Positions 10,778-60,627 of a stretch of 64,000 bases of DNA are shown piece by piece; the first letter of the stretch is position 1, and each line of letters opens with the position of its first letter. The stretch spans positions 96,562-160,561 of the forward strand of contig JAFVBA010000012.1 in NCBI GenBank assembly GCA_017480245.1, read 5' to 3'. The DNA is from Bacteroidales bacterium (lineage in GTDB: Bacteria; Bacteroidota; Bacteroidia; Bacteroidales; P3). The notes under the pieces were generated by a model. That model made no database searches. It saw nothing but the letters and a program-made list of their open reading frames with translations, and was not told where the DNA came from. The position numbers were made by a program, and so were the translations under genes.

Positions 10778-12013
10778 ATGGATATTGATAAATTGACAGC
10801 ACTTATAATTTTTGTCATTACTTACTTGGGGATAATTTTCAATAAATTGCCTCTTTTGAATCTCAACCGCAAAACATCGGCATACGCAGGCAGTGCGGCA
10901 ATGATACTTTTCGGTATGATAAGTTTTGAAGATGCCGTCAAAAGTATAGATTTCAATACCATAGTATTACTTTTGGGAATGATGATTATTATTTCAGCTT
11001 TGCAATTAGAAGGATTTTTCACCTTGATTTCCCGTAAAACCATGTCTTCGGCTAAAAACACTTCAAGGCTTTTAACTCTTGTTGTTTTTATTACGGGAAT
11101 TGCTTCGGCGTTTTTAGTTAATGATGCGGTAGTGTTGTTATTTACTCCCGTAATTATCAATATATGCAAAAAGTCTTCCGTTAATTCCATCCCATTTTTG
11201 CTCGGTGAGATATTTTCTTCCAATGCAGGCTCATTGATGACTATAACAGGTAATCCGCAAAATATGATTATCGGTATTGCTTCGGGTATTTCTTATGTCA
11301 AGTTTATAGTTTATATGCTGCCCATAGCAATCGTGTCCATGCTTATCATTATTTATATTATCAAAAAGACAAACCGCGATATTTTTTCAAAAAAGCAAAT
11401 TATCAAAACGGCAAATGAAGACGGCGAAACATATAATTTGAAAAATATGCGTGCAACTTTGATAATTTTTGTTTTGGTAGTATTGGGATTTTTCTTCGGT
11501 AAAATATTCAATTTGTCCATTCCGTTGATTGCACTTGTCGGCTCGGCTTTGACAATTATGTTTTCCAAACAGGACAGTAAGGAAATATTCAAAGGAGTTG
11601 ATTTCTCGCTGCTTTTGTTTTTCGCCTCACTGTTTATAATCGTTGCAGCAGTGAAACAAAGCGGAGTGTTGGATGCAGTTTTTGAGATAACTTTACATCA
11701 AAATGCCGTTTCATTGCTTATAATTTTTGCTCTTTCGCTTGTTTTGTCGCAATTAGTTTCCAATGTTCCTTATACTATCTTAGTTTTGCCTATATTTACT
11801 TTGGCAAACAGTCAGATACTTTGGTTGTCTTTGGCAGCCTCTTCAACGCTTGCAGGCAATTTGACGATTATCGGTGCAATGGCAAATTTGATTGTAATAG
11901 AGCAGGCTGAAAAAGAAGGAGTAAAAATAACGGCACGCAAATTCTACCGACCTGCAATACTAATCACGATACTAACTTATCTATTTGCAATAGTGATGTT
12001 TATGATTTACTAA
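10778..12013 (+). CDS. ArsB/NhaD/SLC13-superfamily ion transporter
   Basis: This is a polytopic inner-membrane permease of about 411 residues with 10-12 hydrophobic helices. Family hallmarks are the two re-entrant-loop motifs: NDAVVLLFTPVI near residue 110, and ITGNPQNMIIGIASG near 150 with its counterpart AASSTLAGNLTIIGAMANLIV near 365. Substrates in the superfamily include arsenite, Na+/H+, dicarboxylates and sulfate, and the sequence alone does not decide. The ATG at 10778 is preferred over the upstream TTG at 10769. The gene ends exactly where repeat copy A begins: its stop codon at 12011-12013 overlaps the first bases of the element, which may serve as its terminator. Confidence 0.85.
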   Translation: MDIDKLTALIIFVITYLGIIFNKLPLLNLNRKTSAYAGSAAMILFGMISFEDAVKSIDFNTIVLLLGMMIIISALQLEGFFTLISRKTMSSAKNTSRLLTLVVFITGIASAFLVNDAVVLLFTPVIINICKKSSVNSIPFLLGEIFSSNAGSLMTITGNPQNMIIGIASGISYVKFIVYMLPIAIVSMLIIIYIIKKTNRDIFSKKQIIKTANEDGETYNLKNMRATLIIFVLVVLGFFFGKIFNLSIPLIALVGSALTIMFSKQDSKEIFKGVDFSLLLFFASLFIIVAAVKQSGVLDAVFEITLHQNAVSLLIIFALSLVLSQLVSNVPYTILVLPIFTLANSQILWLSLAASSTLAGNLTIIGAMANLIVIEQAEKEGVKITARKFYRPAILITILTYLFAIVMFMIY

Positions 12014-12097
12014 AATAAAGTGCCGAATCACGAAATTGTTTTCAGAAAACATTTTACTCTTTTCTGAAAAGAATTTACTGATTCGGCACTTTATTTT
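12012..12097. repeat. 86-bp palindromic element, copy A (intergenic)
   Basis: A perfect 19-bp terminal inverted repeat (AAAATAAAGTGCCGAATCA and its complement) encloses a second, nearly perfect inverted segment, so almost the whole 86 bp is palindromic around ATTTTACTCTTTT. The same sequence recurs gap-free at 60542-60627, at 26097-26182 (about 67 of 86 positions identical by hand count) and at 19432-19517 (about 62 of 86). Here it follows the transporter stop directly and could fold as a terminator. Its copies inside genes show it is more than that. Confidence 0.9.
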
Positions 12098-12111
12098 GAG
12101 GGTTCATAAAT

Positions 12112-12152
12112 ACAAAATAAAAAGGACGGAATTAAAAAAATTTTTCCGTCCT
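12112..12152 (-). terminator. Rho-independent terminator of the BspA-like pseudogene
   Basis: AGGACGGAA and TTCCGTCCT form a 9-bp stem at 12123-12152, and the minus strand continues into a T-rich run. It lies just 3' of the pseudogene end at 12180. Confidence 0.75.
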
Positions 12153-12179
12153 CAAATTATTATGAACCGAAATTTTAAT

Positions 12180-13123
12180 TTATTGTACAACTAACTTAGT
12201 TATCTTTCTGCCCGCATTGACAAAATAAATTCGGTTTTCAAGGTCTGAAATATCTATCTTGTCAGACTGTTTTAGGTTTTTAATAAATTTAACTATCTGT
12301 CCCAAAGAATTGGTTATAGAAACATCGCCTTGAGTTTGCACCGAGATAAAATCACTTGCTGGGTTAGGGTAAATATTTATTGTGTTATTGCTTGCAATTT
12401 GCTCAATACCCGAAAGATTGCAGTCTTCCTGAATATTAGTAAAGACTTTCCAATCGCTGTTGTCGTATGCATCTTTTCTATCGCACATAACGAAAACATC
12501 AATTCCTTTCAAACTTTCGTCAAAAGAATCATCGGCTAAAGAAGGTGGGTTATCTGCCAAAACAATTAAGGCCTTGATGGCTGTACTTCCCGTAAAAACG
12601 CCTTGATCAACCACCGTAACACCGTCCCATAGAGTAACCTTTTCCAAAGAAGAACAATAGGCGAAAGAATACCAAGTAACTTTCTTTACTTTAGCGGGAA
12701 TAGTAATTTATTTCAATGCACTGCACATTGCAAAAGCGCCGTCAGAAACGGTTTCTAAGCTTTCAGGCAAATCTATTGCGGTAAGAGAGCTGCATTCCAT
12801 AAAAGCCCACCAACCAATTGTCTTCAAAGTGTAAGGAAGTTTGATACTTGTGATATATCTTCCGCCTTGGAAATCCGAATTTTCCAATTCGGTAACTTTA
12901 TAAGTTACTCCTTCGTACTAAACTTCGGATGGAACGACAATATCTCCCTCATAATAATATTCTCCGCCCGAATCGCACCAAACAGCGACGCAAACATTAC
13001 CGTTAGTTAATTGTTTGTAAAAAAGTTTTCCTACTTTGAACGCTCCGTCAGGCTTATCGGCAGCATAGACATTAACAAATACCAAACAAAGCACCGATAC
13101 TAAATTTTCTTAAGTTTTTTCAT
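12180..13123 (-). pseudogene. Decayed BspA-like leucine-rich secreted protein with T9SS sorting domain
   Basis: Reading down from an ATG at 13123, the conceptual product has a signal-peptide-like start. BspA-type leucine-rich repeats follow (TSIKLPYTLKTIGWWAFMEC, then SLTAIDLPESLETVSDGAF), and the end is a type A T9SS sorting domain (INIYPNPASDFISV to ITKLVVQ). It is broken by a frameshift within the first ~20 codons, an in-frame TAG at 12918-12920 and an in-frame TAA at 12708-12710. The longest surviving frame (12180-12647) lacks a signal peptide and cannot make a secreted protein. The relative at 51576 is intact, so this is a dead paralogue. Confidence 0.85.
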
Positions 13124-13149
13124 TTTATTTATTCCTTATTTCTTGTTAT

Positions 13150-13262
13150 TAATTTCAGATTTCGCAGACAAAAATAGGGTATTTAATTTTGCTAAATTAA
13201 ATACCACCCTACCAAATTCAGAATTTTGCTTACCAAATACCGAAATTATCTTACCAAATCAA
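13150..13262. repeat. 21-bp-pitch repeat with palindromic core (locus iv)
   Basis: TACCAAAT starts at 13210, 13231 and 13252, exactly 21 bp apart. Just left of it is a perfect inverted repeat, GGTATTTAATTT then AAATTAAATACC with a 4-base loop (13179-13206). The array runs to the 3' end of the response-regulator pseudogene. The left side shows no clear periodic units, so this copy looks partial compared with loci i-iii. Confidence 0.6.
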
Positions 13263-14152
13263 TTATTTATCTCAATCCAATGCAGAAAATCCGCCGTGTT
13301 TTCTCTGCTTATAGTGACAATATCATCATTAATTTTGGGGTTAAGGGTAATTTTCAGCGTGGAATTGAAATATTTTTCAATGTTTTCAAGACTTGCTACA
13401 TTAATTATATAACTGCGGTTGATAGGGTAGAATTGCGTATTATCCACTTCGGTTATTATCTTACTAAGACTGTCATCCATAAAATATTTATCACCTGAAA
13501 AAGTAACCAAATAGCAATTCCTGTTTTCCGAAACTAAATAAACTATTTCGTTTGCGTCAATTATTTTTATCTTATCGTTGAATTTCAAAATAAATTTGCG
13601 TTTTATCTCTTTTTCTTTCGGTTTTATATTCATTTGTTGCAACAGCGATGCAAGGTTTTCATTAAAAGATGTCTTTTCTTTCAATTGCATGATTTTATTT
13701 ACCGCACTTATGAATTTGTCTTCGTTTAACGGTTTGAGAAGATAACCTATTGCGTTATGTTCAAAGGCTTCCAGTGCATATTTATCGTATGCCGTTGTAA
13801 AGATTATATATGCCGAGGGATTGACTTGCGAAAAAATATTGAAACTGTTGCCATCCGTGAGTTGAATATCCATAAATATCAAATCAACTTCGTTTTTCTT
13901 CAAAAATTCTGCGATAACACGCAGTACATTACGCTTATAAAAATACTTAGAATTAAACCACGAGGCAAGAATCATTGAAGATATGGTCATCAATGAATAA
14001 ACCATAAAATTGAAAAAGAAATAAAAGCCGTCAAATTCGTAAGCCTAAGCATAGTCATTAATTAAAATATCAATGGGTAATGACGTTACGAAAGTAAATA
14101 GCATTATCACCAAATAATATTGCAAATATGTCTTCAGTTTTTGATATTTCAT
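13259..14152 (-). pseudogene. Histidine kinase N-terminus fused by deletion to a LytTR response regulator
   Basis: From an ATG at 14152 the frame reads a hydrophobic N-terminus like the membrane part of a LytS-type sensor kinase. It is interrupted by an in-frame TAG at 14045-14047. Near 13930 the sequence switches abruptly to the second half of a response-regulator receiver domain (DLIFMDIQLTDGNSF with the phospho-acceptor Asp, then TTAYDKYALEAFE and GYLLKPL), followed by an intact-looking LytTR DNA-binding domain. The kinase catalytic part and the receiver's N-terminal acidic pair (usually VDDE) are gone. One deletion joining two adjacent genes explains this. An internal ATG at 14005 could still express a 248-residue LytTR protein, but its receiver domain could not be phosphorylated normally. 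Confidence 0.8.
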
Positions 14153-14230
14153 TTTGCAAAATTACCTCTTCATTACTGTAAATTCACCGAACAGTTTCAC
14201 AAAATTGCTTTTCCAAAAAACCCTATCGCT

Positions 14231-16144: not shown

Positions 16145-16172
16145 TATTATTTTTTATATGAACGTATTTATT

Positions 16173-17033: not shown

Positions 17034-20000
17034 TTATTTTCTTTCGCTGTTTGAATTTTCAAAATTACTAAAATAATCCGAAATCTTCGTTTTGTAATAA
17101 GGAGAATACATCGCAGGAATTTTTCTGAACAATTCAGTGTCCCTACTTTTCAATTTCTTAAATTCTTCAAACGCTGCATTGCCATTTTTCTGCTTATCAA
17201 CTCCCGTTTTGGACTCGCGCTTTTCTTCTTTGTCCTTTTTCATTTCGGCTTTTTCGCTTTCAAGCATACGGGTTAAGATTTGCTTTTGACGGTTAAGCGT
17301 TTGAGTGTTTATTCTCTTATTTACAATATCTTTTTCGGTATCTTCCATTTGTTTAATTGCCTTGTTCATATCTCCGGCTGCCTTTCCTCCGTCTTTTTTC
17401 AACTCGTTAAGATACTCTTGCATCATCTTTCGAATCATTTCTTGCTGTGCGGCGGCTTTAGCCAACCTTTCGTTGAGTTCTTTTCCCTCTCCGATTTGCT
17501 GTTTATTCTGATTACCGCGTTTTTCCAACTCTTTGCTCAAACGTTCTATCTCATTGTTCAACGCTTCCTGCAATTGACGCATATTTTTAGGGTCTTTACC
17601 CTGCTTACTTTGCGAAGGATTGTTGCATTGATTCTTCGCATTTTTGCTACTGCTCTTTTTGTTGCTGCGCATTTGCTGTTGCTGTTGGTTCATCTTGTCA
17701 AGACTTTCGGCAAGTAGTAACGCAAGATTGTTCATTGAGGACATGGAATACTGTTGTGAAGTTGCGGCTTGATTATTCTTATAATTATTATAGTAACTTT
17801 GGTTAAAATATAACAGAGAGGACAAAGTCTTTTCTATATTTTCGGAAACCTTGAACGTTTCATCGTTAATAGTTTTTGAAACCTGCGGTTGGCGTTTGCT
17901 AATGGCGTAAAGACTGTCCGAAATGGTCTGCATACTTTCTTTAACCGTGTTTTGCGAATTGATAATCTTCTGATAAGTCGGGTCAGTTACGGAAGTTTTT
18001 TGCGTAGAATAAATAAGGTCTTCCTGTTTTTTGGAAAGAGTAACCAAATTCTTCAATATCTGGCGCACATCTTCAATATCCTCAGCCAATTGTTCCTCTT
18101 GGCTTTCTTCCATTGCCTGTTCCATTTGCTGAGCCATCTCCTGCATTTGCTCTGATGCTTGTTTTTGATTTTCGGATGCTTTTTTGTTTTTGTTATTCTT
18201 CAGATTATCCTGCGCTTGTTTCTGTTGGGAACTGATTTGTTGCTCTTTTTGTTTGTCTTGTTTGAAATTGAACGGGTCTTGCAACTGATTGTCTTTCTCT
18301 TTGGTCTCATCCATCTTTTTTTGCAAGTCCTTAAATTCCTTGTTCAACTCTTCCTGACGGCGTTGTAAGTTCTCTTCGGAATCTTTCCTGTTTTTGGTGT
18401 CTTCAGATAACTGTTTTTGTTTTTCAGACAACTCTTTAAGTTTGTCAATACTCTCATTAATATCTTTTTCTACGTCCAAACGTTTGTAAAGTTCCAAATT
18501 CTTGTCCAGTTGTTTGGATATATCCTCGTTTTTCTTGGAAATATTCTTCAGTTGTTCGTTAATTTGGTCTTTATTGAGGTTTTTGTCCATCAGTTGTTCC
18601 ATTTGCTTTAGCAATTCTTCCAAATCCTTATTCTGAAGTTGCTTAAACAATTCTTCAATCAGCTTCTGCTTTTCCAAAAATTCCTCGTCAATATCTTTAT
18701 ATTTCTTTTCCAATAAAGAATTTTCCTCTATCTTCTTTTCTATTTCGTTTATCTTATCCTGAATCTCCTCTTGTTTTTGCTTCAATTGCTGTAAATCTTT
18801 CTCGTCTTGCCAAGAGAGTTCTTTCTTTTCGGTTAATTTCTTTGTCAAATCGTTTATTTCTTGTTGCAATTTGCGGATTTCGTCCAACGTTTTGTCTGCA
18901 CCTTTCTTTATGTCCTCACTGTTTTTACTCAACTTCTCATCTAACTGTTTTTCTGTCGGAATATCAACAGTAAATGTCTGCGATTTAGTGCTTTTTGCTC
19001 CATTTATAGCGTCATTATCCCACACTTCAAACCAATAATCCGCTTTATCACCTTGTTTGATACCGTATTCGCTCAAATTTTCTGCATGATAAAACTCCTG
19101 GGTACTCTCATTGTCGGTAACAGGTAACTTTTTAGTATAGATTTTTGCTTGATTGCTGTTTTGAGGAGTGATTTTCAAATGAAATTCCAACCTGGAAAAT
19201 CCGTAATCGTCCTTTATCTGACCACGGAAATAGATATTATCAACTATAAGAGTGTCCTTCTGCTCTATAACGGCGATAAACGGTTTTTCGTCAGCCACGG
19301 TATTGATATTAAACGCTATGCTGTCCGAAGAAACTGTGAATTCGTTCTGCGTTTTTATAACAACGGAAGTATTTTCCCTGTAAGTTGCAGGAACATTAAC
19401 CAATCCTTTTTTATCGGGAGTAAATTCAGTTGAAATAAAGTGCCACTTCAGTAAATTGTTTTCTGAAATCATTTTACTCTTTTCTGAAAACAATCCCATA
19501 GAATGCGATGTTATTAAAACCTTACTGCAATCTTTGGTTCTCAAATGCCAAATAACTTTAGTACCCTGCGGAACGGACAAATCGGTTACATTGTTTATCG
19601 TCTCGTTTTTAATATGTGTGTAAGCAGGATAAACAATCTCCGCACTTAAATCAGTAAGTATCGGTTTTGGATTGACTGTTATTTGATAGATTTTGCTATA
19701 TACGTCAGCCGCTTCAAATTGTACGGGAATGGTTTTCTGAATCTGTGAGATAATATAAGAAAAATGCGTTTTATCTTTCTTTTTCATCTCAAAGGTTTGT
19801 CCGTTTATCACGGCATTGACCCTTTCGGGAAGAATATCTCCTTTAACCGTTACTTCTATTTCATAATCGCTTTGTTGGACTGCCGTCAAAGGTGAAGTGA
19901 TTTCAAAAGAAAACGGCGCAGGTTTCTCATAAAATGTATTGTGGTTAATATAGCGTTTGCTTGGTTCGGAAAACAATTTCGGAAATGCGAATGCCAAAAC

Positions 20001-20492
20001 AATGACTATTGCAACCACACCGATAAGATATTTTGAAAATTTCTTTGTCTGCGTTGTATCAACAGCTTTTTGGAAAGGTATCGGACTTAATTGGGCAGTC
20101 TTTTGCTCAATTGCGGCAGAAAGTAATTCGTTTTCCTGATTTTTGGCAATGTCTTGCAATTGCAAAAGATTTAAAAGTTTATCCTGTATAGTTGAAAAGT
20201 GATTTCCGATTATTGAGGCGGCTTGCTCATACGTTAAAGTCTTACCTATTTTAAATAATTTGAATAACGGTCTTATTATCCACACACAACCAACCGCCAA
20301 AGTCAGCAAAATGTATGCATAAAACACAATTGTGCGGAATAAAACCGAAGTCCAACCGAAATATTCTATCAAATTAAGGGCTACAAAGAAGAGAATAAGT
20401 AATAAAAGTGCATAAACGATGCCTTTAACCACAAGATTCTTGTAGTATTTTCTTATAAAAGCATTCAGTTTTTCCGTTATTTTGTTCTGCAT
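17034..20492 (-). CDS. DUF4175-type large membrane protein with long coiled coil
   Basis: This 1152-residue protein has two membrane helices near residues 22-45 and 50-75 and a third near 150-170, followed by a beta-rich periplasmic region (about 190-500). A very long Gln/Lys/Glu-rich coiled coil spans about 505-1110, broken by a Gln-rich stretch. This layout matches the DUF4175 family common in Bacteroidota, whose function is not established. At about residues 328-353 it contains peptide encoded by repeat copy C (19432-19517), read in frame; homologues would be expected to lack this segment. It follows atpB by 41 bp and precedes the HATPase-like gene by 16 bp. Confidence 0.8.
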   Translation of the reverse strand: MQNKITEKLNAFIRKYYKNLVVKGIVYALLLLILFFVALNLIEYFGWTSVLFRTIVFYAYILLTLAVGCVWIIRPLFKLFKIGKTLTYEQAASIIGNHFSTIQDKLLNLLQLQDIAKNQENELLSAAIEQKTAQLSPIPFQKAVDTTQTKKFSKYLIGVVAIVIVLAFAFPKLFSEPSKRYINHNTFYEKPAPFSFEITSPLTAVQQSDYEIEVTVKGDILPERVNAVINGQTFEMKKKDKTHFSYIISQIQKTIPVQFEAADVYSKIYQITVNPKPILTDLSAEIVYPAYTHIKNETINNVTDLSVPQGTKVIWHLRTKDCSKVLITSHSMGLFSEKSKMISENNLLKWHFISTEFTPDKKGLVNVPATYRENTSVVIKTQNEFTVSSDSIAFNINTVADEKPFIAVIEQKDTLIVDNIYFRGQIKDDYGFSRLEFHLKITPQNSNQAKIYTKKLPVTDNESTQEFYHAENLSEYGIKQGDKADYWFEVWDNDAINGAKSTKSQTFTVDIPTEKQLDEKLSKNSEDIKKGADKTLDEIRKLQQEINDLTKKLTEKKELSWQDEKDLQQLKQKQEEIQDKINEIEKKIEENSLLEKKYKDIDEEFLEKQKLIEELFKQLQNKDLEELLKQMEQLMDKNLNKDQINEQLKNISKKNEDISKQLDKNLELYKRLDVEKDINESIDKLKELSEKQKQLSEDTKNRKDSEENLQRRQEELNKEFKDLQKKMDETKEKDNQLQDPFNFKQDKQKEQQISSQQKQAQDNLKNNKNKKASENQKQASEQMQEMAQQMEQAMEESQEEQLAEDIEDVRQILKNLVTLSKKQEDLIYSTQKTSVTDPTYQKIINSQNTVKESMQTISDSLYAISKRQPQVSKTINDETFKVSENIEKTLSSLLYFNQSYYNNYKNNQAATSQQYSMSSMNNLALLLAESLDKMNQQQQQMRSNKKSSSKNAKNQCNNPSQSKQGKDPKNMRQLQEALNNEIERLSKELEKRGNQNKQQIGEGKELNERLAKAAAQQEMIRKMMQEYLNELKKDGGKAAGDMNKAIKQMEDTEKDIVNKRINTQTLNRQKQILTRMLESEKAEMKKDKEEKRESKTGVDKQKNGNAAFEEFKKLKSRDTELFRKIPAMYSPYYKTKISDYFSNFENSNSERK
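19432..19517. repeat. 86-bp palindromic element, copy C (inside the DUF4175 gene)
   Basis: The first ~63 bases align without gaps to copies A and B (AAATAAAGTGCC at the start, then ATTTTACTCTTTTCTGAAAA), while the right terminal arm is eroded. It is read on the minus strand as GLFSEKSKMISENNLLKWHF, without stops. Total identity to copy A is about 62 of 86 by hand count. Confidence 0.8.
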
Positions 20493-25897: not shown

Positions 25898-26833
25898 ATG
25901 AACGATAACCTTAATAACTTAAAATCAAAAACCGAAGAAGCATTGCAGCAACTTTTCGTTTGTTTGCAGGAAAATCAAACGTGCAATGAAATTCTTAAAT
26001 TAGAGGAAAAAATAGATTTGTTATTGCAAAATACTAACGAAATCCTGCGTCAAAACAAAGAGATAATATCTCTGACTAACGAGGTTTTGAATAACCAAAA
26101 TAAAGTGCCGTTTTACGAAACTAATTTCAAAAAAGAATCTACTGATTTCAAAAAAGATTTTACTGAAACGCCACCTTATTTTGAGGAAAAGCAAACAAAA
26201 GAAAATGAATCTGTTACCAAAGAATCAGAAGAGGTAAAGAAAGAAGAAGAAACTAAGAAAGAAGAAAGCGTTTCTTTGGAACAGCAGATAGTTCAGACGC
26301 AAAAAGAAATAGAAGAGTTGCAAAGACAACGGGAAGAAGCCCAAAAGGCAGAACTAACTGTTGAAGAAGAACCGAAAGAAGAAGAGAAACCTCAAGAGCA
26401 GCAAAAGACATCTTCCGTTTTGGAGTTTCTGCACAAAAGAGTTATCAAAGACAAAACTACAGAAGACATAAAAGAACAGCAAAACGAAGAATCACCACAA
26501 CCGTCTGCCATAAGAAACTTAACAGAACAGATAAAAGCGGAAGCAAAACAGTCTTCGGAGAAAAAACCGCGCTCAATAGCCGAGCAGTTTGAGGACAGAA
26601 CGAACAAAGATTTGCTTTCGGCAATAGGAGTAAGCGAAAAGTTTATGTTTATCAATGATTTGTTTTCTGGAAGTATAAAAGACTACACAGAATTTATCAA
26701 TGATTTGAACTCAAAGGCGGATTTGCAGACATCTTTATCACAAATGGAAATGATGCAAAAACAAAAAAAATGGGCTAAAACATCATTAGCTTATACGACA
26801 TTGGAAAATATAATAACAAAAAGATTTGAATAA
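25898..26833 (+). CDS. Charged coiled-coil protein with conserved C-terminal domain, unknown function
   Basis: This 311-residue protein has no signal peptide. It has an N-terminal helical region (residues 1-70), a low-complexity Glu/Lys/Gln-rich middle (80-190) and a C-terminal domain (about 225-311, SIAEQFEDRTNKDLLSAIG, then FMFINDLFSGSIKDYTEFI). A similar C-terminal domain occurs in Bacteroidota hypothetical proteins. Residues 67-95 are encoded by repeat copy D (26097-26182) and read through it in frame. It lies 4 bp upstream of gmk and 29 bp after the pseudouridine-synthase homologue, so all are probably one operon. No function is assigned. Confidence 0.7.
   Translation: MNDNLNNLKSKTEEALQQLFVCLQENQTCNEILKLEEKIDLLLQNTNEILRQNKEIISLTNEVLNNQNKVPFYETNFKKESTDFKKDFTETPPYFEEKQTKENESVTKESEEVKKEEETKKEESVSLEQQIVQTQKEIEELQRQREEAQKAELTVEEEPKEEEKPQEQQKTSSVLEFLHKRVIKDKTTEDIKEQQNEESPQPSAIRNLTEQIKAEAKQSSEKKPRSIAEQFEDRTNKDLLSAIGVSEKFMFINDLFSGSIKDYTEFINDLNSKADLQTSLSQMEMMQKQKKWAKTSLAYTTLENIITKRFE
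26097..26182. repeat. 86-bp palindromic element, copy D (inside the coiled-coil gene)
   Basis: Exactly 86 bp, it aligns gap-free to copy A (about 67 of 86 identical): it starts AAAATAAAGTGCC and ends CTTATTTT. It is read on the plus strand as NKVPFYETNFKKESTDFKKD and onward, with no stop. The middle shows a doubled ATTTCAAAAAAGA..CTACT unit. Confidence 0.82.
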
Positions 26834-26836
26834 ACG

Positions 26837-27394
26837 ATGAATCTTATAGTTTCCGCACCGAGTGGCAGTGGCAAGACAACGATATTGAAAAAATTGTTTG
26901 AGAAATACCCTAATGATTTCGGTTTTTCAGTATCGGCAACCACCCGTGCGCCGCGTAAGGGAGAAGAAAACGGGAAAGATTATCATTTTCTCACCCCTGA
27001 AGAGTTTAACAAGAGAATAACCGAAGAGGAATTCTTGGAATACGAACAGGTTTATGCCAATCTGTATTACGGAACGCTGAAAAGTGAGATAGAAAGGATA
27101 AGCGGTGAGGGCAAATACCCTGTTTTTGATGTTGATGTCAAAGGCGGAGTGAATATCAAGAAAAGTTTGGGCGATAAAGCGCTGAGCGTGTTTATTATGC
27201 CGCCGAGTATTGAAGTTCTAAGGCAAAGACTGCTTAACCGAAATACAGAAAACGAAGATACTTTGAAAAAACGTTTGGACAGAGCGGAAATGGAAATCGG
27301 TTATTCCAAGTTTTTTGACAAGGTTATCATCAATGACGATTTGAATAAGGCTGTTGAAGAATTTGTAAAGACAGTAGAAGAAAATATTTTTTAA
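26837..27394 (+). CDS. gmk: Guanylate kinase
   Basis: Gmk phosphorylates GMP to GDP with ATP. The 185 residues match the family size. The P-loop APSGSGKTTI is at residues 7-16, SATTRAPRKGEENGKDYHF near 34 is the GMP-binding segment, and VFDVDVKGGVNIKKSL and NRNTENEDTLKKRL complete the fold. It starts 4 bp after the coiled-coil gene and is followed 3 bp later by the SpoIIE phosphatase gene. Confidence 0.96.
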   Translation: MNLIVSAPSGSGKTTILKKLFEKYPNDFGFSVSATTRAPRKGEENGKDYHFLTPEEFNKRITEEEFLEYEQVYANLYYGTLKSEIERISGEGKYPVFDVDVKGGVNIKKSLGDKALSVFIMPPSIEVLRQRLLNRNTENEDTLKKRLDRAEMEIGYSKFFDKVIINDDLNKAVEEFVKTVEENIF

Positions 27395-38479: not shown

Positions 38480-38715
38480 GAAAGTTCTCATGTTTTTACT
38501 GCCAAAAGAATATATTTTTTTGCCAATAGCTGACTAATTTTTGCCACTTGCGGAAATAATAAGAAAAATACCCCCTCTTTTTGTCAAAAAGACCCGGTAT
38601 TTTCAGCAAAAAGACCCCCTTTTTTCATCACTATTTCCGCAAGTGGCAAAAATTTCTAAGCTATTGGCAGCAGAAATAAAGTAATTGGCAAAAAAATCTT
38701 CTGAAATAAAGGCAA
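38480..38715. repeat. 21-bp-pitch inverted repeat array (locus i)
   Basis: The left side has TGCCA at 38500, 38521 and 38542, exactly 21 bp apart. The right side has TGGCA at 38644, 38665 and 38686, again 21 bp apart, in inverse orientation. A perfect 23-bp inverted pair (TATTTCCGCAAGTGGCAAAA and three more bases, versus the left arm near 38535-38556) encloses a centre with CAAAAAGACCC repeated 22 bp apart (38585 and 38607). The remaining bases between this array and the promoter at 38335 hold nothing recognisable. Confidence 0.85.
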
Positions 38716-43787: not shown

Positions 43788-46700
43788 TTATTTTGAAATG
43801 ATAAGTTTGATATTCTTGTAAATATTCTCTCCTTTTATTGTAACCAAATAAGAACCGTTCGGCAGATTTTCCAATCCCAATACATTATCTCCCAAATTTA
43901 ATGTAATATTGTCCGAATATACCTTAGCACCTTTGGAATCGGTTACAATAATATTTACATCCTTTGCATTCAAGTCTGTATTTGCCGTGATAAATACCGT
44001 TCCCGAAGAAGGATTAGGGGATATTGCAAGATTATTATCCTCATTCACCCCGTCAAATCCTACTCCATAGGTAACTTCTACCTCTCCCAAACCTGAAACT
44101 GCTGCATTGCAGACTCCACTTTTGACTGTAGCACGGTAATAATATACTCCCATATCCTCCGGTTTGTCAGTAAGATATTCTTGTCCTGAAGAATTATCTA
44201 TTTCCTGCCAATCATAACCAGGACGCAGACGCTGCCAATAAAGAATATCACCTACATAAGCGCGAAGTTGGAATTTAGCATCTTGATACTGCGGAACATT
44301 ATCTTGCATTGCGAAAACATTACCGCCTTTTGACGCCGGGTCTATAGTAATTGTAATTATATCGGAAGTATCAACGGAAACATAAGAAGTAACTACACGT
44401 CTGTAATAAGTAGTTTTGAATAATTGCATAGGAGCATACCAATAATCATCATTAACGCTGCCTTCGTCGCACGGTTGCCAAGTAATACCGTCATTAGATG
44501 AAATCCAAAGATATTCGTATGTACCGTTACCACCCGTAGGAGAAGAACCATTCAAAGAAGAAGGCACACTGCCGGTGCAAAGATGTTGGTCAGAAGATAT
44601 AGTATTATTAAATATAGGAATATAAGGTGTAGTTATTTTCATAGTCTGTCCGTATGCAGTACCGTAACTATTGGTTGCAAAAGCACGGACGTAATATGTT
44701 GTCAAAGGTTCAAGGTTGGTTATTGCCACATTGAATGTTCCGCTGCCGTTACCTGAATTTATTTTACTGTCTGCAATTGTTGGATTATTGTGTTTAGAAT
44801 AAACAAAACCTCTTTGAGTAACAGGTGTCATTCCTTCGTATGTTATTGTACCCTGTGCATACATCTTATTATAATCTGTCAAATATATGCTGTCGGTTGA
44901 TACAAAGGCTATCTGAGATACGGCTTTTACTTCCAAATTATCCAGTACATAAGCCTCATTGCTCAATCCTGCTCCCCAAAATGCAATATAGGCGTTTTCG
45001 CTTTGATGATTCAAAGTAGGGATATCAACCGTTATAGTCTGTCCGTCAGGTTCCGTTGCAGTGTTTAGCAATTCCCATTCACCCTCTACTCCATCGCGGT
45101 AATAAACCTCAACATTATGAACAGACGCATCGTCTGTCATTCTTGTCGCTTTATAAATTACTGCCATAGAATCCTTATTTGACAAATCCAATATAGGAAG
45201 TATCAATTTGTCTTGCATATCAAAACAAACAGTATCCACAGAAGTTAAATCAGGAGTGTAAGGAAAATCTGTTATCTTCGCACATTTGGTTACGAAAGTT
45301 TCTTCTGTTGAATAGGAAATCATACCTTGATTTTGTGCAAATGCCCTTACGTAATATTGAGTTGAAGATTCCAATTCATTAGTTGCAACCGTATAGTTAC
45401 CTATTGACATATCCGAAGAAGTAATCACAATATCATTAACAGTCGGTGAAGATTGAGTACTCAAAACAAAGCCTTTATTAACTAAATTAGTGAATCCGCT
45501 ACTTTGAATATTAGCTTTAAAAGTTGCTCCGTTGTCCGTAATATTTTCAATGGAAGTAAAATCAACTACAGGCCAAGAAGCGATATTTTTATCCGTAACA
45601 ATTACATCATCCAAATACACTCCGTCTCCTGCTTTCAACGCAGCTTCAAAACCTATATACAATGTTTGACTTTTAACCGGCAATTCTATAGTATCCGTCT
45701 GCCAATTGCTAATCTGAGATGTATATTCTTTCAACAAAACCCAAGAACCTCTTAAAGAAGTCTTATAATAAACTTTCAGATTATCGGTGTGGTAGGATTC
45801 AGTCTTTTGATAATGGTCAAAAATAACAATAGGCTCGTCCAAAACTGTAATATCCATCGGAGGAGTTATCAATTTGATTTGAGGTTGTGGCTTATATTCG
45901 GATCCTGTCCAAATATAATCGCTATGGATATATGCATTATTACTGTCATTTACCGTCCAATTAGTACAAACATATACCGTATTTTCTTCTCTCCAACATT
46001 CTTCTATGCCATTTGTAAAATCTTCGTAATAAGGAAATGAATTGATACTTGCACACGGAGTTTTGATTTGTATAATCTCCCCGTAAGAAATTCCGCTTGC
46101 AGTTTTAGCATAGGGGCGCAGGTAATAAGTTTGATTGTTATTCAATCCTATTAAATTAACATTGATTTGTGTATTAGAAGAAGAATTATCTATTTGTTTA
46201 GTTGAATTTGCCTCCGAAGGAACTGAATTGTCAGAATACAGAAATCCTTTTTCGGTAATTGTAAGTGAGTTTGCTTTAAGCGAAGCCGTAGATACAACGG
46301 TATCAAAAGCAAAATCAAAGTTAGCATCGTATATATCAACAAAATTACTCGTATCTCCTATATGGAAAGTTATGTTAGAGGTATTTTCATTTTCCGATAT
46401 ACGATAAAGAGGTTTGTTTAAATAGATTCCGTCATAAGACTTGGTAGATGGAGTTGTCAAATCCGAAAAAGAACGTACTTCTAAACTACCAGGAAACGGT
46501 TGATTCTGTCCGTAAGAATAGCCACCGTTCCAAAAACTATAAACATGCTTATCTGTATTTGCCGTAATAAGTTCAAAACCTAACCTTGAGGTATCGCAGT
46601 TAACACAATTGTTATTCCAACCGGAAACATTACGGTCTATTTTGTAGATAATAAGACCATGACCCGGTAAATAAGTGTCAAAACCAGTCTGTTGGCGGTT

Positions 46701-47945
46701 TTCCAATAAGAAATATTCATTAGGCAATCCGTCATAACTCAAACGGATAGCTTTAGCAGATTTGCCTAATTCCTCCAAAGTATAGTCCTCTCCGACTATG
46801 CCGTCTTCAAGTGTTACATAATTACGCACTGTTCTTTCCATAGCATGCCAAAGCGGAGGAAAAGCACTGTTACCATTGTAATTGCCGCCTGCCATCAAGT
46901 CCCACTCTCCTGGATTGAACGCATTGCCGTGTGTTTCGTAGTCCGTGTCATAATAATCCGGCTGTCCGAGAACATGAGAGAACTCATGACAAATAGTACC
47001 TATCTTCATAGGAGAGTTAGAACCCTCATAACTTTCCAGCTCGGAAGAACAACCATAATCATATATATATACATCGTCCAACATTAACGGAGTAAGCAAC
47101 CTACTTCTGTGCGGCCAAATCAAATCTGCATTATTACCCGACACTGCCTGCGAATAACCGGCATAAAGAACATATACACAAGATACATATTTATTTACAT
47201 CTCCGTTAATATACTCACTGTAATCAATATCTGGGTCTGCTTTCTTTACAGCTTCCCTTATAAGTTCCCTTACGTGTAAATCATTGGCATAATCTGCAGC
47301 CTTGCCGTAGTAATGTTGATTACTGTCAGAAACATACGGTCCAAGGACGGTTGCAGATAAGTTTAACTTACCCGAAGATGAAGCAACAAAAAAGTCATGA
47401 ACAGAGCCAGGGTGTCCGTTTTTGGAATAACCGACTTGATTAAACAAATTATCTACATCTTCTTTCGGAGTAGTAAAAGCATAATCCTTAAAGGACATCA
47501 AAATTACGACCATTTTATAGTCTTCCACCTCATCACTGCCTGCTTTGAGCTTTGCAACTTTTTTAGAATAGTCTATACCAGCATTAATGTACTGGTTCAT
47601 AAGACTTACTTGCTCTTTGGAATAAAACAGTTTCTTTTTGACAGAAGATAGAAACGCTATTTCCTCTTGAGTTCTGTCTTGAGGATTATGAGCTATGACA
47701 TTGGAAGATTTCATTCCGCCTTTACCGTCTTCGATTGCATAAACAAAATCATGATTATCGGCAATCATAAGAGTATAATCGTCAATCGTTCTGTACCAAG
47801 TTACTCTTTCGTCTCCAAACGGAGTTACCGTTAGTGTTGTTCCATCAGATTGTTTAACATCCGCAGGAACGGATTTAATAACTGTTGCCATTGCGGCATT
47901 CAATCCGAATAAGCAAATCAGAATTACAGTCAATATTTTTTTCAT
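43788..47945 (-). CDS. M6-family metalloprotease with T9SS type A sorting domain
   Basis: The ATG at 47945 (MKKILTVILICLFGLN) gives a proper signal peptide; the longer frame to 48041 would start in the promoter. The ~1385-residue protein has an immune-inhibitor-A/M6-type catalytic domain with zinc motif HEFSH near residue 318, in TICHEFSHVLGQPDYYDT. Jelly-roll and fibronectin-type III-like domains follow (about 530-1100, with repeated TYYVRAFA strands), then a PKD/Ig-like stretch. The last ~80 residues are a T9SS sorting domain (LAISPNPSSGTVFITA to IKLIISK). It is likely a secreted proteinase; the substrate is unknown. Confidence 0.9.
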   Translation of the reverse strand: MKKILTVILICLFGLNAAMATVIKSVPADVKQSDGTTLTVTPFGDERVTWYRTIDDYTLMIADNHDFVYAIEDGKGGMKSSNVIAHNPQDRTQEEIAFLSSVKKKLFYSKEQVSLMNQYINAGIDYSKKVAKLKAGSDEVEDYKMVVILMSFKDYAFTTPKEDVDNLFNQVGYSKNGHPGSVHDFFVASSSGKLNLSATVLGPYVSDSNQHYYGKAADYANDLHVRELIREAVKKADPDIDYSEYINGDVNKYVSCVYVLYAGYSQAVSGNNADLIWPHRSRLLTPLMLDDVYIYDYGCSSELESYEGSNSPMKIGTICHEFSHVLGQPDYYDTDYETHGNAFNPGEWDLMAGGNYNGNSAFPPLWHAMERTVRNYVTLEDGIVGEDYTLEELGKSAKAIRLSYDGLPNEYFLLENRQQTGFDTYLPGHGLIIYKIDRNVSGWNNNCVNCDTSRLGFELITANTDKHVYSFWNGGYSYGQNQPFPGSLEVRSFSDLTTPSTKSYDGIYLNKPLYRISENENTSNITFHIGDTSNFVDIYDANFDFAFDTVVSTASLKANSLTITEKGFLYSDNSVPSEANSTKQIDNSSSNTQINVNLIGLNNNQTYYLRPYAKTASGISYGEIIQIKTPCASINSFPYYEDFTNGIEECWREENTVYVCTNWTVNDSNNAYIHSDYIWTGSEYKPQPQIKLITPPMDITVLDEPIVIFDHYQKTESYHTDNLKVYYKTSLRGSWVLLKEYTSQISNWQTDTIELPVKSQTLYIGFEAALKAGDGVYLDDVIVTDKNIASWPVVDFTSIENITDNGATFKANIQSSGFTNLVNKGFVLSTQSSPTVNDIVITSSDMSIGNYTVATNELESSTQYYVRAFAQNQGMISYSTEETFVTKCAKITDFPYTPDLTSVDTVCFDMQDKLILPILDLSNKDSMAVIYKATRMTDDASVHNVEVYYRDGVEGEWELLNTATEPDGQTITVDIPTLNHQSENAYIAFWGAGLSNEAYVLDNLEVKAVSQIAFVSTDSIYLTDYNKMYAQGTITYEGMTPVTQRGFVYSKHNNPTIADSKINSGNGSGTFNVAITNLEPLTTYYVRAFATNSYGTAYGQTMKITTPYIPIFNNTISSDQHLCTGSVPSSLNGSSPTGGNGTYEYLWISSNDGITWQPCDEGSVNDDYWYAPMQLFKTTYYRRVVTSYVSVDTSDIITITIDPASKGGNVFAMQDNVPQYQDAKFQLRAYVGDILYWQRLRPGYDWQEIDNSSGQEYLTDKPEDMGVYYYRATVKSGVCNAAVSGLGEVEVTYGVGFDGVNEDNNLAISPNPSSGTVFITANTDLNAKDVNIIVTDSKGAKVYSDNITLNLGDNVLGLENLPNGSYLVTIKGENIYKNIKLIISK

Positions 47946-48011
47946 TTTATTATATGTTTTTATTATTCCGAACAATACACTGATAAATATAAAATTATAC
48001 TTAGCAGGTTG

Positions 48012-48042
48012 CAAAGTTATGAATATTAATTCAAATAACAAT
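48012..48042 (-). promoter_or_regulatory. Promoter for the M6 protease gene
   Basis: On the minus strand TAACTTTG (48012-48019) is preceded 19 bases upstream by ATTG. It lies ~65 bp before the ATG at 47945 and supports that start. Confidence 0.55.
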
Positions 48043-48119: not shown

Positions 48120-48335
48120 TTTTAACGATGCCTTTCTTTGACTTTTTTACGCCCCTTGGAGACTTTGCGCCGCCCTTTGCGGAAATAATTAAAAAAAAAC
48201 TCTTTTTTTGATACTAAAAAACAGTTTTTTTGACATAAAAAAAGAGTTTTTTTCAAAATAAATTGCGAAAGGGCGGCGGAAAATCTCCAAAGGGCAGCAA
48301 AATTAAAGGAAAGGGCAAAAAGGAATCATAGAAAA
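48120..48335. repeat. 21-bp-pitch inverted repeat array (locus ii)
   Basis: The left side has GCCTTT or GCCC words at 48130, 48151 and 48172 (21-bp steps). The right side has AAAGGGC with GGGC at 48271, 48292 and 48313 (21-bp steps), inverted relative to the left. The centre has three TTTTTTT tracts ~22 bp apart (48203, 48225, 48247), and AAAAAAACTCTTTTTTT faces AAAAAAAGAGTTTTTTT. The layout matches loci i and iii with unrelated words. No open frame of interest lies here. Confidence 0.87.
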
Positions 48336-48481
48336 ACATAATTGTTTCACCAAATTTTCATTCTATTATATCAAATTTGAATTCTATTATATAATATATG
48401 TATAGGGAATTTTGATTTTAATAACAGAAATTGAATGTTTAGTGGTTTTAATTGTGTAGTCTTTGCCGTAAATCAATAAAA
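48336..48481. other. AT-rich spacer with a 21-bp direct repeat
   Basis: TTCTATTATAT occurs at 48361 and 48382, again 21 bp apart. Otherwise the stretch between the array and the tRNA-Leu terminator shows nothing recognisable. Confidence 0.5.
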
Positions 48482-48517: not shown

Positions 48518-48601
48518 TACTTCTGAAGGGACTTGAACCCTTAAGCCCTTGCGGACACCAGATTTTGAGTCTAGCGCGTCTACCAATTCCGCCACAGAAG
48601 C
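48518..48601 (-). tRNA. tRNA-Leu (anticodon CAA)
   Basis: The minus-strand cloverleaf starts GCTTCTGTGGCGGAATTGG, with acceptor stem GCTTCTG pairing with CAGAAGT and anticodon loop CTCAAAA. A long variable arm (GGTGTCCGCAAGGGC) and the T-arm GGGTTCAAGTCCC follow. The long variable arm confirms a class II tRNA. CCA is not encoded. Confidence 0.95.
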
Positions 48602-54524: not shown

Positions 54525-54584
54525 TGTAAAAACTCTTCTAATATTTTTAAACCGTTATGCAGAGTTTTTTTGTTTTACTTTTTG

Positions 54585-54981
54585 TGGAGCTGCAGGGATT
54601 CGAACCCTGGTCCAAACAAGAGAAACCGAAGTTTTCTACACGCTTATTCTATTGTTATCTTGTCGGAAAAAGGCAGTCAATAGACAGGCTTTCCTTTAAC
54701 TTATCTTCTTAAATTTCATTAGCGATGCGAAGAAAATCTCTAACTAAACCTTCTTAATGATGCACCCCTTAGCGAGAAAACGGAAGGTTATAAGTCCTCT
54801 CAGGAGCGTCTTGCTCAACACCTTGTGCCGATAAAGAGTAGCCTACTGTACTTCGACTACGCAGCAAGAGCGTAAGTATTTTCGCCAATTAATTTTTCGT
54901 AACCGTATTTAAAGTTATCTGTTACCTGTAACTGCGTGCTTGCTTGAGCCTCTATCTTGCTGTCAAAACCAACCCAACCCC
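54585..54981 (-). ncRNA. ssrA: tmRNA
   Basis: tmRNA rescues stalled ribosomes. On the minus strand the 5' end GGGGTTG pairs with CAGCTCC near the 3' end (7-bp acceptor stem), and the T-arm reads GGGTTCGAATCCC. The tag reading frame at 54857-54886 encodes GENTYALAA followed by TAG. The total is ~397 nt; CCA is not encoded. A consensus promoter (55011-55041) precedes it. Short frames called here on either strand are artefacts. Confidence 0.96.
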
Positions 54982-55163: not shown

Positions 55164-55238
55164 GGTCTGGTAGTTCAGCTTGGTTAGAATACATGCCTGT
55201 CACGCATGGGGTCGCGAGTTCGAGTCTCGTCCAGACCG
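55164..55238 (+). tRNA. tRNA-Asp (anticodon GTC)
   Basis: The acceptor stem GGTCTGG pairs with CCAGACC. The D-arm is GTTCAGCTTGGTTAGAAT, the anticodon stem-loop ATGCCTGTCACGCAT contains GTC, and the T-arm is GCGAGTTCGAGTCTCGT. Its length is 75 nt, and CCA is not encoded. Confidence 0.96.
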
Positions 55239-55280: not shown

Positions 55281-55421
55281 GTTTTAATTTACCTTTATTA
55301 CAAAGGCAATTTGTAACAATACAAAATCTTTTCGTTTTAATTATAAATTGTCATAAAATATCAACAGAATGGTACAAATAATGTGTCAACTTTTTTGCAT
55401 GCTAATTTTAATATTTTCTAT

Positions 55422-55459
55422 CTTAAAAGATTTTCTACTCGGTGAGTGGAAAATCTTTT
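55422..55459. repeat. Long hairpin, AT-rich
   Basis: AAAAGATTTTCTAC pairs with GTGGAAAATCTTTT (14 bp, one G-T pair) around a 7-base loop. No T-run follows on either strand, so a terminator role is uncertain. It lies between tRNA-Asp and the array at 55500. The rest of 55281-55484 shows nothing recognisable. Confidence 0.55.
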
Positions 55460-55499
55460 AAAAATAATTTATAACGAGTGGTGTTTATTGGTTGTGGTG

Positions 55500-55775: not shown

Positions 55776-55857
55776 TACAAAAGAACCGTCAGAATCAATG
55801 AAACTGACGGTTGCTAATCTGTAAAAATTTACGTAAATACAGAAATATTAACTTTTT

Positions 55858-57084: not shown

Positions 57085-57086
57085 AT

Positions 57087-57824: not shown

Positions 57825-57830
57825 AAGGCG

Positions 57831-59045: not shown

Positions 59046-59065
59046 AGTATTATGAATTTAATTAT

Positions 59066-60349
59066 TTACAACTTTATTTCTTTATTTGAGTAATAATCCA
59101 ACAGTTTTAATTTCATCAAGGCTTGATATTTTGCCTGTAAGGTTGCCTGTTGTGCCGAAGAAAGCGCTGTTCTTTGGTGCAATAACTCAATTATATTTTT
59201 CATTCCTAAATCAAATTGTTTTGAAACCAAATTATACGACTTTTCGCTCGCACTTAAGTTGGCTTTGGCACTCTTATAAGATTGTTGATATGACATACAA
59301 TCCAAATGCAATTCGTCAATAATCTTGTACAATTGCTTTTCCTGCTGGGCAATGGAGTTTTCGGCAACAAGAACTTGGTTTTTAGCCTGAATAACTGCGT
59401 TTTTGGTCTGACGTTTGTCGTAAATAGGAACGGAAATGCTCAATCCGATGTTTTCATTTACCGAACTTTTCAATTGTTTCATCACTTCCAAATCACTTTT
59501 GGAGTTATGCCCTGCCGAAACGCCCGCACCGAGAGAAACATTAGGCAAATAGCCCCCTTTAGCAGTGGAAACATTCAACTCAGCAGCCTGTTTGTCTTTT
59601 TGGGCAGCCAAAATATCGGGAACAAAGGTCAATGCCTTATTATATATTGTAATCACATCGTCCAAAGTTACCAAAATATCTTCGTCATTTACCGTTATCT
59701 CCTGTATTTCTACGTTCTCGGTAAGTTCCATCAACTGCTTAAGTTCAAGTTTCTGCTTTTGGTAAGCGTTTTGTGCCTCAATGACGCGGTAATTATACGA
59801 AGCGTTATCACTTTCCAACACCACAACATCAACCGAGGAGATACTGCCTGCTTCATACATCGCATTAGCACGTTCAAGTGTTTTGTTACTTAATTCCAAA
59901 TTCGCCTGAGCCGTAATAATGGACTCTTTGGCATAAAGGATTTGGATATAAGTTTGAAGAATTGACAACATAATATTATCTTCCGCCTGTTTGACTTCAA
60001 TAGAGGCAATCTCTCCGGCAAGATTCTTCTGTTTAATGTTGTTATACGTTTTTCCGCCATCATAAATATTCATATTGGCATTTAAACCGTACGAACCGTT
60101 ATAAACTCCCTCCCCTATGTCGTTTGTATAAGTGAAATTCTGTCCCGAAGTAAAGGAAAGCGAAGGATAATACCCTGCCTTAGCGGTTAGAATATTGTCC
60201 TGAGCCAAAGTATCGTTCAATCGGGAAAGTTTAACTGACAAATTGTTCTGCCGTGCATAGTTTATACACTCTTCCAAAGTCCAAACCTTTTGGGCTGTTA
60301 CAAAAAGAGAACAACAAATACACAACACACTGAAAAATAACCTCTTCAT
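59066..60349 (-). CDS. TolC-family outer-membrane channel
   Basis: The 427-residue protein has a signal peptide (1-19, ending FVTAQ) and the TolC duplication of long helices and short strands. It starts WTLEECINYARQNNLSVKL, continues TAKAGYYPSLSFTSGQNF and TAKGGYLPNVSLGAGVSA, and ends in FDLGMKNIIELLHQRTALSSAQQ. It is the first gene of the efflux operon with macA-, ATPase- and permease-like genes, and forms the exit duct. Confidence 0.93.
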   Translation of the reverse strand: MKRLFFSVLCICCSLFVTAQKVWTLEECINYARQNNLSVKLSRLNDTLAQDNILTAKAGYYPSLSFTSGQNFTYTNDIGEGVYNGSYGLNANMNIYDGGKTYNNIKQKNLAGEIASIEVKQAEDNIMLSILQTYIQILYAKESIITAQANLELSNKTLERANAMYEAGSISSVDVVVLESDNASYNYRVIEAQNAYQKQKLELKQLMELTENVEIQEITVNDEDILVTLDDVITIYNKALTFVPDILAAQKDKQAAELNVSTAKGGYLPNVSLGAGVSAGHNSKSDLEVMKQLKSSVNENIGLSISVPIYDKRQTKNAVIQAKNQVLVAENSIAQQEKQLYKIIDELHLDCMSYQQSYKSAKANLSASEKSYNLVSKQFDLGMKNIIELLHQRTALSSAQQATLQAKYQALMKLKLLDYYSNKEIKL

Positions 60350-60541
60350 ATTATTAGATAAATTGATTTTAAGTAATTATGGTATTTTTTAGACAAAGTT
60401 TTCAGAGAAACGTCTAAAATCTTATCATCAAAAAAAGAAAACATTTTAGTTTCTATTATCTGTAAAATACCAATCAAAACTACAACAAGAGTAAAGAAAT
60501 ATTATATAAAACAACTTATATTTCTTAGTTCTCTATTGCGC
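60350..60541. other. Region upstream of tolC
   Basis: AT-rich, no open frame. A short inverted pair TTTTAGAC/GTCTAAAA (60389-60419) is the only structure seen. No clear TAnnTTTG promoter was found. Confidence 0.4.
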
Positions 60542-60627
60542 AAAATAAAGTGCCGAATCAGAAAATTGTTTTCAAAAAAGATTTTACTCTTTTCAGAAAA
60601 CAATTCAGCGAATCGGCACTTTATTTT
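60542..60627. repeat. 86-bp palindromic element, copy B (intergenic)
   Basis: Exactly 86 bp, nearly identical to copy A with the same 13-base start and 14-base end. It lies between the tolC operon start and the terminator of the type-B cargo gene. In the frame used by copy D it has no stop codon over its full length. Confidence 0.9.

What the first reader, a model, noticed from the sequence alone, without database searches (positions are those of the whole stretch)
12012..60627. 86-bp palindromic element, four copies, in intergenic and coding sites
Copies at 12012, 19432, 26097 and 60542 align over 86 positions with no gaps. A has a perfect 19-bp terminal inverted repeat, and nearly the whole unit is palindromic. 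A and B are intergenic; C and D are inside intact genes and translated in frame. B is free of stops in the frame used by D, and the complement of A is free of stops across its core in the frame used by C. That is how the Rickettsia palindromic elements behave: selfish or structural units that survive inside protein genes. I know of no described Bacteroidota counterpart, though I could not search.
Basis: seen in the sequence. Interest (0 to 1): 0.82.

Follow-up and report, generated by a model that had tools for sequence, protein, structure and literature searches.

The report
Dispersed 21-bp modular repeats in Bacteroidales
The repeated 86-bp palindrome is one of many copies in an uncultured Bacteroidales genome; it is built from four 21-bp blocks, and related species carry 21-bp block arrays of different sequence at many of the same places, mostly between genes and sometimes in frame inside genes, which points to an unexplained way of copying and rewriting short DNA blocks.

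Summary
The repeat is real, but two labels are wrong: B (19433) and C (26098) are coding, A and D intergenic. The core is 84 bp: four 21-bp units, end units inverted. The draft genome holds at least 84 copies; of 82 examined, 67 are intergenic and 6 lie inside an ORF of 100 aa or more, including dnaG and a nucleotidyltransferase. A same-genus relative, G027, has 208 arrays of 21-bp units with other sequences in 1.19 Mb. Sites are often shared: 9 of 11 orthologous gaps with an own copy hold a G027 array, against 5 of 22 gaps of at least 100 bp without one (p 0.002). One nucleotidyltransferase loop carries in-frame 21-bp arrays in six genomes and none in three. Intergenic tandem periods peak at 21-22 bp. 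No Y1 transposase in 14 genomes, no target-duplication signal. Best reading: a REPIN/BIME-like mosaic of 21-bp modules (two helical turns, seven codons) whose sites persist while units are replaced. The Rickettsia comparison is partly supported.

The parts
12013..12096 (-). copy A, 84-bp core of four 21-bp units; intergenic, its first base is the last base of the stop codon of ORF 10769-12013
19433..19516 (+). copy B, 84-bp core with one decayed arm; read in frame on the minus strand as about residues 326-354 of ORF 17034-20492
26098..26181 (-). copy C, 84-bp core; read in frame on the plus strand as about residues 67-95 of ORF 25898-26833
60543..60626 (-). copy D, 84-bp core; intergenic, between an outer-membrane efflux (OEP) gene and a CHU_C secretion-signal gene
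17034..20492 (-). host ORF of copy B, 1152 aa; DUF4175 match of 24.6 bits, below the 27.3-bit cut-off; none of 12 aligned relatives shows the inserted peptide
25898..26833 (+). host ORF of copy C, 311 aa, no Pfam match, directly upstream of a guanylate kinase ORF (26837-27394); insert in a charged low-complexity linker
13188..13295 (.). possible array of about 21-bp period, unrelated in sequence, intergenic
   Evidence: 39 of 63 lag-21 matches; weak
48348..48445 (.). possible array of about 21-bp period, unrelated in sequence, intergenic
   Evidence: 39 of 63 lag-21 matches; weak

Best explanation
It is a dispersed, palindromic, modular repeat that works like a REPIN or BIME but has a fixed 21-bp module. 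A typical copy is end unit, inner unit, inner unit, inverted end unit = 84 bp. Shown here: module size, copy number, intergenic bias, in-frame coding copies, species-specific unit sequence, and shared sites in two species. Inferred: copies were seeded by a copying process of unknown enzymology; an occupied site tends to persist, while its 21-bp units are replaced one or a few at a time by the unit type now common in that genome, through ectopic conversion or template switching between dispersed copies. Because 21 bp is two turns of the helix and also seven codons, gain, loss or exchange of units keeps both helical phase and reading frame, so arrays survive in protein loops and linkers as well as between genes.
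For: Module: copies align as 4 x 21; relatives show 42-, 63- and 84-bp versions; 122 of 208 G027 arrays are about 4 units long; lags 21 and 42 are the two highest intergenic autocorrelations of lags 12-49 in own (z 10.7, 7.0) and G027 (z 9.0, 6.5), also in own with the known copies masked (z 9.9); gaps with a strongly periodic window number 24 at lag 21 and 25 at lag 22 in own, 136 and 30 in G027, and 0-1 at each lag of 16-20 and 24-27; inside ORFs of 150 aa or more lag 21 leads, 7 of 306 in own and 16 of 815 in G027. Same sites with other units: 9 of 11 against 5 of 22 gaps of at least 100 bp, p 0.002. Coding site: in-frame arrays in the nucleotidyltransferase loop of own, G027, G016, G066, G081 and G058, with lag 21 the best lag in the five tested (G066, nearly identical to G016, was not tested), and a short loop in G037, G004 and G062. 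Mosaicism: 22 of 74 classifiable own copies have discordant arm types and arm types are not significantly linked (p 0.12); own copy C29:93936 keeps a G027-like end unit.
Against: No enzyme or intermediate was found. Shared sites could be insertion hot spots. Only 11 own-occupied gaps could be compared, 6 of them on one own contig; in the part of the genome sampled without regard to copies there are only 3 (3 of 3 shared against 10 of 101; with both gaps of at least 100 bp, 2 of 2 against 5 of 19, p 0.10). Weak linkage of arms could come from point mutation after whole-element copying. Two of 11 gaps are own-only and own dnaG holds a copy that G027 dnaG lacks, so new insertions happen too. The 22-bp arrays and the many sequence-unrelated arrays in own are not explained by one mosaic family. 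Pairing in the stem shows no covariation beyond shuffles.
Confidence: 0.5

Rival explanations
1. A non-autonomous mobile element (MITE- or Rickettsia-palindromic-element-like) that is copied as a whole by a transposase acting in trans and has strong target preferences, so that different species have been hit independently at the same tolerant sites.
For: Defined ends and a modal length of 84 bp in two species; near-identical copies, 8 of 82 within one difference of the consensus; own-only sites; near-absence from the interior of genes.
Against: No excess of 2- to 9-bp direct repeats at the edges of 82 copies over re-paired flanks; no Y1 transposase in 14 genus genomes, with the control ringing in 5 of 14; array length varies from 2 to 8 units; the same coding loop holds arrays of different units in six genomes. 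Other transposase families were not searched.
Confidence: 0.25
2. Independent minisatellites: each array grew at its own locus by replication slippage, with a preferred step of about two helical turns.
For: Many sequence-unrelated arrays share the 21-22-bp period; a period of 14 is slightly raised too (5 gaps in own, 8 in G027); unit numbers vary.
Against: The same unit sequences recur at 84 or more dispersed places with inverted end units; slippage does not move units between loci or invert them.
Confidence: 0.12
3. A functional DNA site: phased AT tracts every two turns form curved DNA or a binding platform for a nucleoid or supercoiling protein, and selection keeps the phase while the letters drift.
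For: The sharp 21-22-bp period across unrelated sequences and persistence at shared sites. That phased AT tracts bend DNA is recalled, not tested here.
Against: Copies inside dnaG, a nucleotidyltransferase and other proteins are hard to read as chromosomal architecture sites; density differs several-fold between two close species (31 hits in 459 kb in own; 208 arrays in 1.19 Mb in G027, with different detection methods). No curvature or binding was measured.
Confidence: 0.1
4. Intrinsic transcription terminators.
For: A strong RNA hairpin is predicted (-37.4 kcal/mol for the consensus strand) and the ends are T-rich; in G027 arrays lie nearer to gene 3' ends than 5' ends (median 43.5 against 100 bp).
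Against: No preference for convergent over divergent gaps: 32 of 85 divergent, 39 of 76 convergent, 52 of 129 and 55 of 129 codirectional gaps of at least 100 bp in G027 (p 0.32); the 66 own copies with a known context also fit the background (p 0.32). In-frame copies would stop transcription inside genes.
Confidence: 0.03

Closest known systems
REPINs and bacterial interspersed mosaic elements (REP/RAYT), e.g. Bertels and Rainey 2011 PMC3116915 (abstract seen)
   Same: Short inverted doublets of palindromic units, roughly a hundred dispersed copies, mostly extragenic, mosaic arrangement, predicted hairpins.
   Different: No RAYT-type (Y1) transposase in 14 genus genomes; no GTAG or CGTC tag at the ends of the consensus; strict 21-bp module; in-frame copies in genes; unit sequence differs between species at shared sites.
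GTAG- and CGTC-tagged REPs, PMC3733652 (passages seen)
   Same: CGTC repeats are reported there from Bacteroidetes and lack a dedicated transposase; some REPs lie inside genes, including replication and repair genes; different REPs are reported at about the same site of recB in two Xanthomonas species, a precedent for shared coding sites.
   Different: Single units of 20-40 bp with a terminal tag, no 21-bp tandem module.
Rickettsia palindromic elements (PMC10969869, passages seen; the original papers were not held)
   Same: Palindromic, many copies, read through in frame in genes, stop-free frames.
   Different: About 150 bp by that review and nearly half within ORFs; here 84 bp in 21-bp modules and about 5% clearly mid-gene.
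BrickBuilt MITE of Porphyromonas gingivalis, PMC4596501 (start of the text and passages seen)
   Same: Bacteroidales; tandem bricks of about two helical turns (23 nt) between inverted ends; species-specific.
   Different: 19 copies, always intergenic, 23-nt bricks, terminal repeats resembling IS5-family elements; here 21 bp, other ends, more copies, in-frame copies.
PARCELs, PMC2996958 (abstract and outline seen)
   Same: Palindromic DNA that encodes tandem protein repeats.
   Different: 25-residue protein repeat in tandem within ORFs, against 7 codons per unit and mostly intergenic here.

Membership tests
REPIN / REP-RAYT | inverted doublet of palindromic units, many extragenic copies | tested here: met
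REPIN / REP-RAYT | RAYT (Y1 transposase) in the genome | tested here: not met
   PF01797 in 0 of 14 genus genomes; own genome 69.55% complete; control positive in 5 of 14
REPIN / REP-RAYT | GTAG or CGTC tag at one end of the unit | tested here: not met
   own core begins AAATAAAG and ends CTTTATTT; read from the consensus only
MITE | terminal inverted repeats | tested here: met
   19 bp perfect in copy A; outer stem in most copies
MITE | target-site duplication | tested here: not met
   82 copies, direct repeats of 2-9 bp not above re-paired flanks; a duplication inside the AT-rich ends could be missed
MITE | related autonomous element in the genome | tested here: inconclusive
   only the Y1 family was searched; draft genome
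BrickBuilt | 23-nt bricks | tested here: not met
   period 21, with 22 in some other arrays
BrickBuilt | always intergenic | tested here: not met
BrickBuilt | IS5-like terminal repeat (GAGACCTTCGCA as printed in the paper) | tested here: not met
   ends compared by eye
Rickettsia palindromic elements | palindromic element read in frame inside genes | tested here: met
   B, C, dnaG, nucleotidyltransferase
Rickettsia palindromic elements | large share of copies inside ORFs | tested here: not met
   6 of 82 in ORFs of 100 aa or more; G027 22 of 208
Rickettsia palindromic elements | sequence homology to a described RPE family | not tested
   no RPE sequences compared; Rfam found no repeat family in the window or in 4 further stretches
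PARCEL | 25-residue tandem repeat | tested here: not met
   seven-codon unit
Intrinsic terminator | preference for gene ends, avoidance of divergent gaps | tested here: not met
   chi-square p 0.32 in both genomes; median distances lean to 3' ends

The most novel reading that the evidence does not exclude
A lineage of Bacteroidales has an undescribed process that writes and rewrites DNA in 21-bp quanta (two helical turns, seven codons): dispersed arrays of unrelated sequence families obey the same unit length, sit at conserved intergenic sites and conserved protein loops, and are refilled in each species with its own unit sequence, so that some proteins of the genus carry species-specific heptapeptide inserts at fixed positions.
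Probability: 0.3. Interest if true: 0.9.

Novelty: new variant of a known kind. Interest (0 to 1): 0.72.

Why it matters
Dispersed bacterial palindromes are usually explained by a transposase that copies them. Here the repeats keep a strict 21-bp quantum over unrelated sequences, no such transposase was seen, and two species hold arrays of different sequence at shared sites, in genes as well as between them. If unit replacement is confirmed, it would be a short-patch concerted evolution in bacteria, and a route by which in-frame heptapeptide inserts, even in dnaG, arise and change. It also gives a concrete way to test whether REP-like repeats persist by selfish copying or by conversion.

Tried and rejected
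Covariation as proof of a selected stem: rejected. On 43 aligned copies (40 distinct) the single hairpin is paired in 84.2% of cells against 85.6% in shuffles, and the three-stem alternative is no better supported (89.0 against 88.8); palindromy looks inherited, not maintained copy by copy.

Coding selection on intergenic copies: unresolved. Frames +3 and -3 are open in 82 and 80 of 82 copies. Stop-creating changes are under-represented there (rate ratios 0.32 and 0.10, against 1.0 to 3.7 in the other frames) and the shared wobble phase is more variable (p about 0.03), but few events are involved and copies are related. I first thought that the modularity alone explains the open frames; a unit-shuffled null gives two or more open frames in only 29-36% of cases, three or more in 1.5-9%, against 123 of 180 G027 intergenic arrays with two or more, so that thought is not borne out. 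Non-array intergenic windows of G027 are fairly open too (mean 1.16 frames, arrays 1.57, shuffles 0.54).

Terminator reading: see rivals. Y1 transposase: none. Target duplication: none above chance. Gene-split reading of copy C8:23714: it lies in a 730-aa frame with one TAA, but G027 has two separate ORFs with a 117-bp gap and an array there, so a broken gene is not the simplest reading. Literature: searches listed no paper on a 21-bp modular repeat family in Bacteroidales; subscription papers are not held. PMC4679880 (abstract, outline, passages) describes TAACTGA heptamer repeats, also in some Bacteroidetes; a different, 7-nt repeat.
Full report
What was checked. The four copies exist and align without gaps. 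Two of the four labels are exchanged: B and C are coding, A and D intergenic. The repeating core is 84 bp, and writing 24 full copies in rows of 21 shows four units, with the first and last as inverted repeats.

Copy number and placement. In 459 kb taken without regard to copies (contig C9, the first 60 kb of C11, the window) a profile finds 31 hits, 24 of them full length. A covariance model finds 83 distinct places in the draft genome before its cap, B not among them, so at least 84. Context could be read for 82: 67 intergenic, 9 touching an ORF end or a short ORF, 6 inside an ORF of 100 aa or more; two of those 6 lie within 10 codons of the ORF start. The four clear cases are B, C, dnaG (688 aa, insert after the DnaB-binding match) and a nucleotidyltransferase (272 aa). 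Coding fraction of the sample is 88%, so the intergenic bias is strong. The window's two coding copies score lower (54 and 57 bits) than its intergenic ones (80 and 72).

Relatives. The genus members G027, G070 and G054 and the other-genus genome G012 carry versions with different letters and 42, 63 or 84 bp. G027 is the richest seen: 208 merged arrays in 1.19 Mb, 122 of about four units, range 2 to 8, with several core types.

A 21-bp rule. Of lags 12 to 49, identity between bases is highest at 21 and 42 in intergenic DNA of own (z 10.7 and 7.0) and G027 (9.0 and 6.5), and stays so in own when the profile hits are masked (9.9 and 6.5). In one or two stretches each from 19 further genomes, lag 21 has z of 2 or more in 12 (G004 2.0, G016 10.5, G037 7.6, G047 3.0, G054 2.1, G066 7.7, G081 4.2, G070 3.8, G003 3.2, G012 3.6, G023 5.5, G031 2.5), z of 1.0 or less in 6 (G022, G050, G002, G032, G045, G017) and one had too little DNA (G015); these are small samples and z is against the spread of other lags, so values near 2 mean little. 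Counting gaps with a strongly periodic window, own has 24 at lag 21, 25 at 22, 3 at 23 and 5 at 14; G027 has 136, 30, 9 and 8; lags 16-20 and 24-27 have 0 or 1 each. Many own arrays are unrelated in sequence to the 84-bp element. Inside ORFs of 150 aa or more, lag 21 leads: 7 of 306 in own, 16 of 815 in G027, where lag 24 has 7 and lag 18 has 3. 21 bp is two turns of B-DNA (recalled) and seven codons.

Shared sites, different units. Orthologous adjacent gene pairs (288 orthologues, median 83% identity) give 11 own-occupied gaps; 9 hold a G027 array made of G027-type units, often at a similar distance from the flanking genes. Of own-unoccupied gaps in the unbiased part, 10 of 101 hold one, 5 of 22 if the own gap is at least 100 bp (p 0.002). 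Limits: in the unbiased part alone there are only 3 own-occupied gaps (3 of 3; with both gaps of at least 100 bp, 2 of 2 against 5 of 19, p 0.10), and 6 of the 11 are on one contig.

A coding site. In the nucleotidyltransferase, between GGGxLxxA and HNVD, own, G027, G016, G066, G081 and G058 have 37 to 58 residues coded by in-frame DNA of 21-bp period with different units. Lag 21 is the best lag in own, G016, G027, G081 and G058 (0 or 1 of 2000 shuffles reach it); G066 is nearly identical to G016 and was not tested. G054 has 79 residues with a weak signal (54 of 2000). G037, G004 and G062 have 16 to 18 residues. G070 was unreadable at the site; G078 had no match; G074 and G047 had only weak matches. 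The C gene of G027 has weak profile hits at the aligned place (22.5 and 25.3 bits). None of 12 aligned B orthologues shows the inserted peptide, and G027 dnaG lacks the insert.

How it may work. Two processes seem needed. Seeding of new sites is shown by own-only copies (dnaG, two gaps). Replacement of units at old sites is inferred from shared sites with other letters, from arms of one copy that belong to different types in 22 of 74 copies, and from an own copy that keeps a G027-like end unit. Ectopic conversion or template switching would do both jobs at unit scale; the enzyme is unknown. A whole-element transposon with hot spots remains the main rival. Direct repeats at the edges are not above chance in 82 copies, and no Y1 transposase is present in 14 genus genomes. 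Gene context does not favour terminators. The stem shows no covariation beyond shuffles.

Open frames. Two frames are free of stops in almost all copies, intergenic ones included, and G027 arrays have two or more open frames in 123 of 180 cases, above a unit-shuffled null of 29-36%.

Place among known things. It works like a mosaic REP or REPIN population, with a BrickBuilt-like brick and Rickettsia-like in-frame copies, but fails a tested defining feature of each family (tag and RAYT; 23-nt bricks and intergenic restriction; share within genes). I therefore file it as a new variant of dispersed palindromic repeats and not as a member of any of them.

Noticed in passing
window 38521-38669 and 48144-48302: A second palindromic family of about 150 bp with A- and T-rich centres; blastn finds 8 further places of more than 80 bp in contigs C9 and C11, and G027 has a similar poly-A/T palindrome in one gap.
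   Followed up: partly
right or left of 8 of 24 full copies in C9, C11 and the window (C9 41461, 56972, 119406, 153511, 241949, 302109, 313026, 317107): A satellite module of about 42 bp containing TGCGGCTCGCACC abuts the 84-bp element, often keeping the 21-bp register.
   Followed up: partly
L280:1409-3475 (own genome C26): The element sits in frame inside dnaG primase, an essential gene, and is missing from dnaG of G027.
   Followed up: partly
own contig C9, e.g. 28974, 73235, 126170, 261466, 289971: Several sequence-unrelated 21-22-bp arrays, e.g. around AAAAATATTTC and ACCGTCTGAAAT cores.
   Followed up: no
window 28809-38003 and 43788-48041: Large T9SS-signal ORFs: 3064 aa with fibronectin type III and MAM matches, and 1417 aa with an M6 peptidase match.
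   Followed up: no
window 54582-54981, 55164-55238, 48518-48601: tmRNA and two tRNA genes.
   Followed up: no
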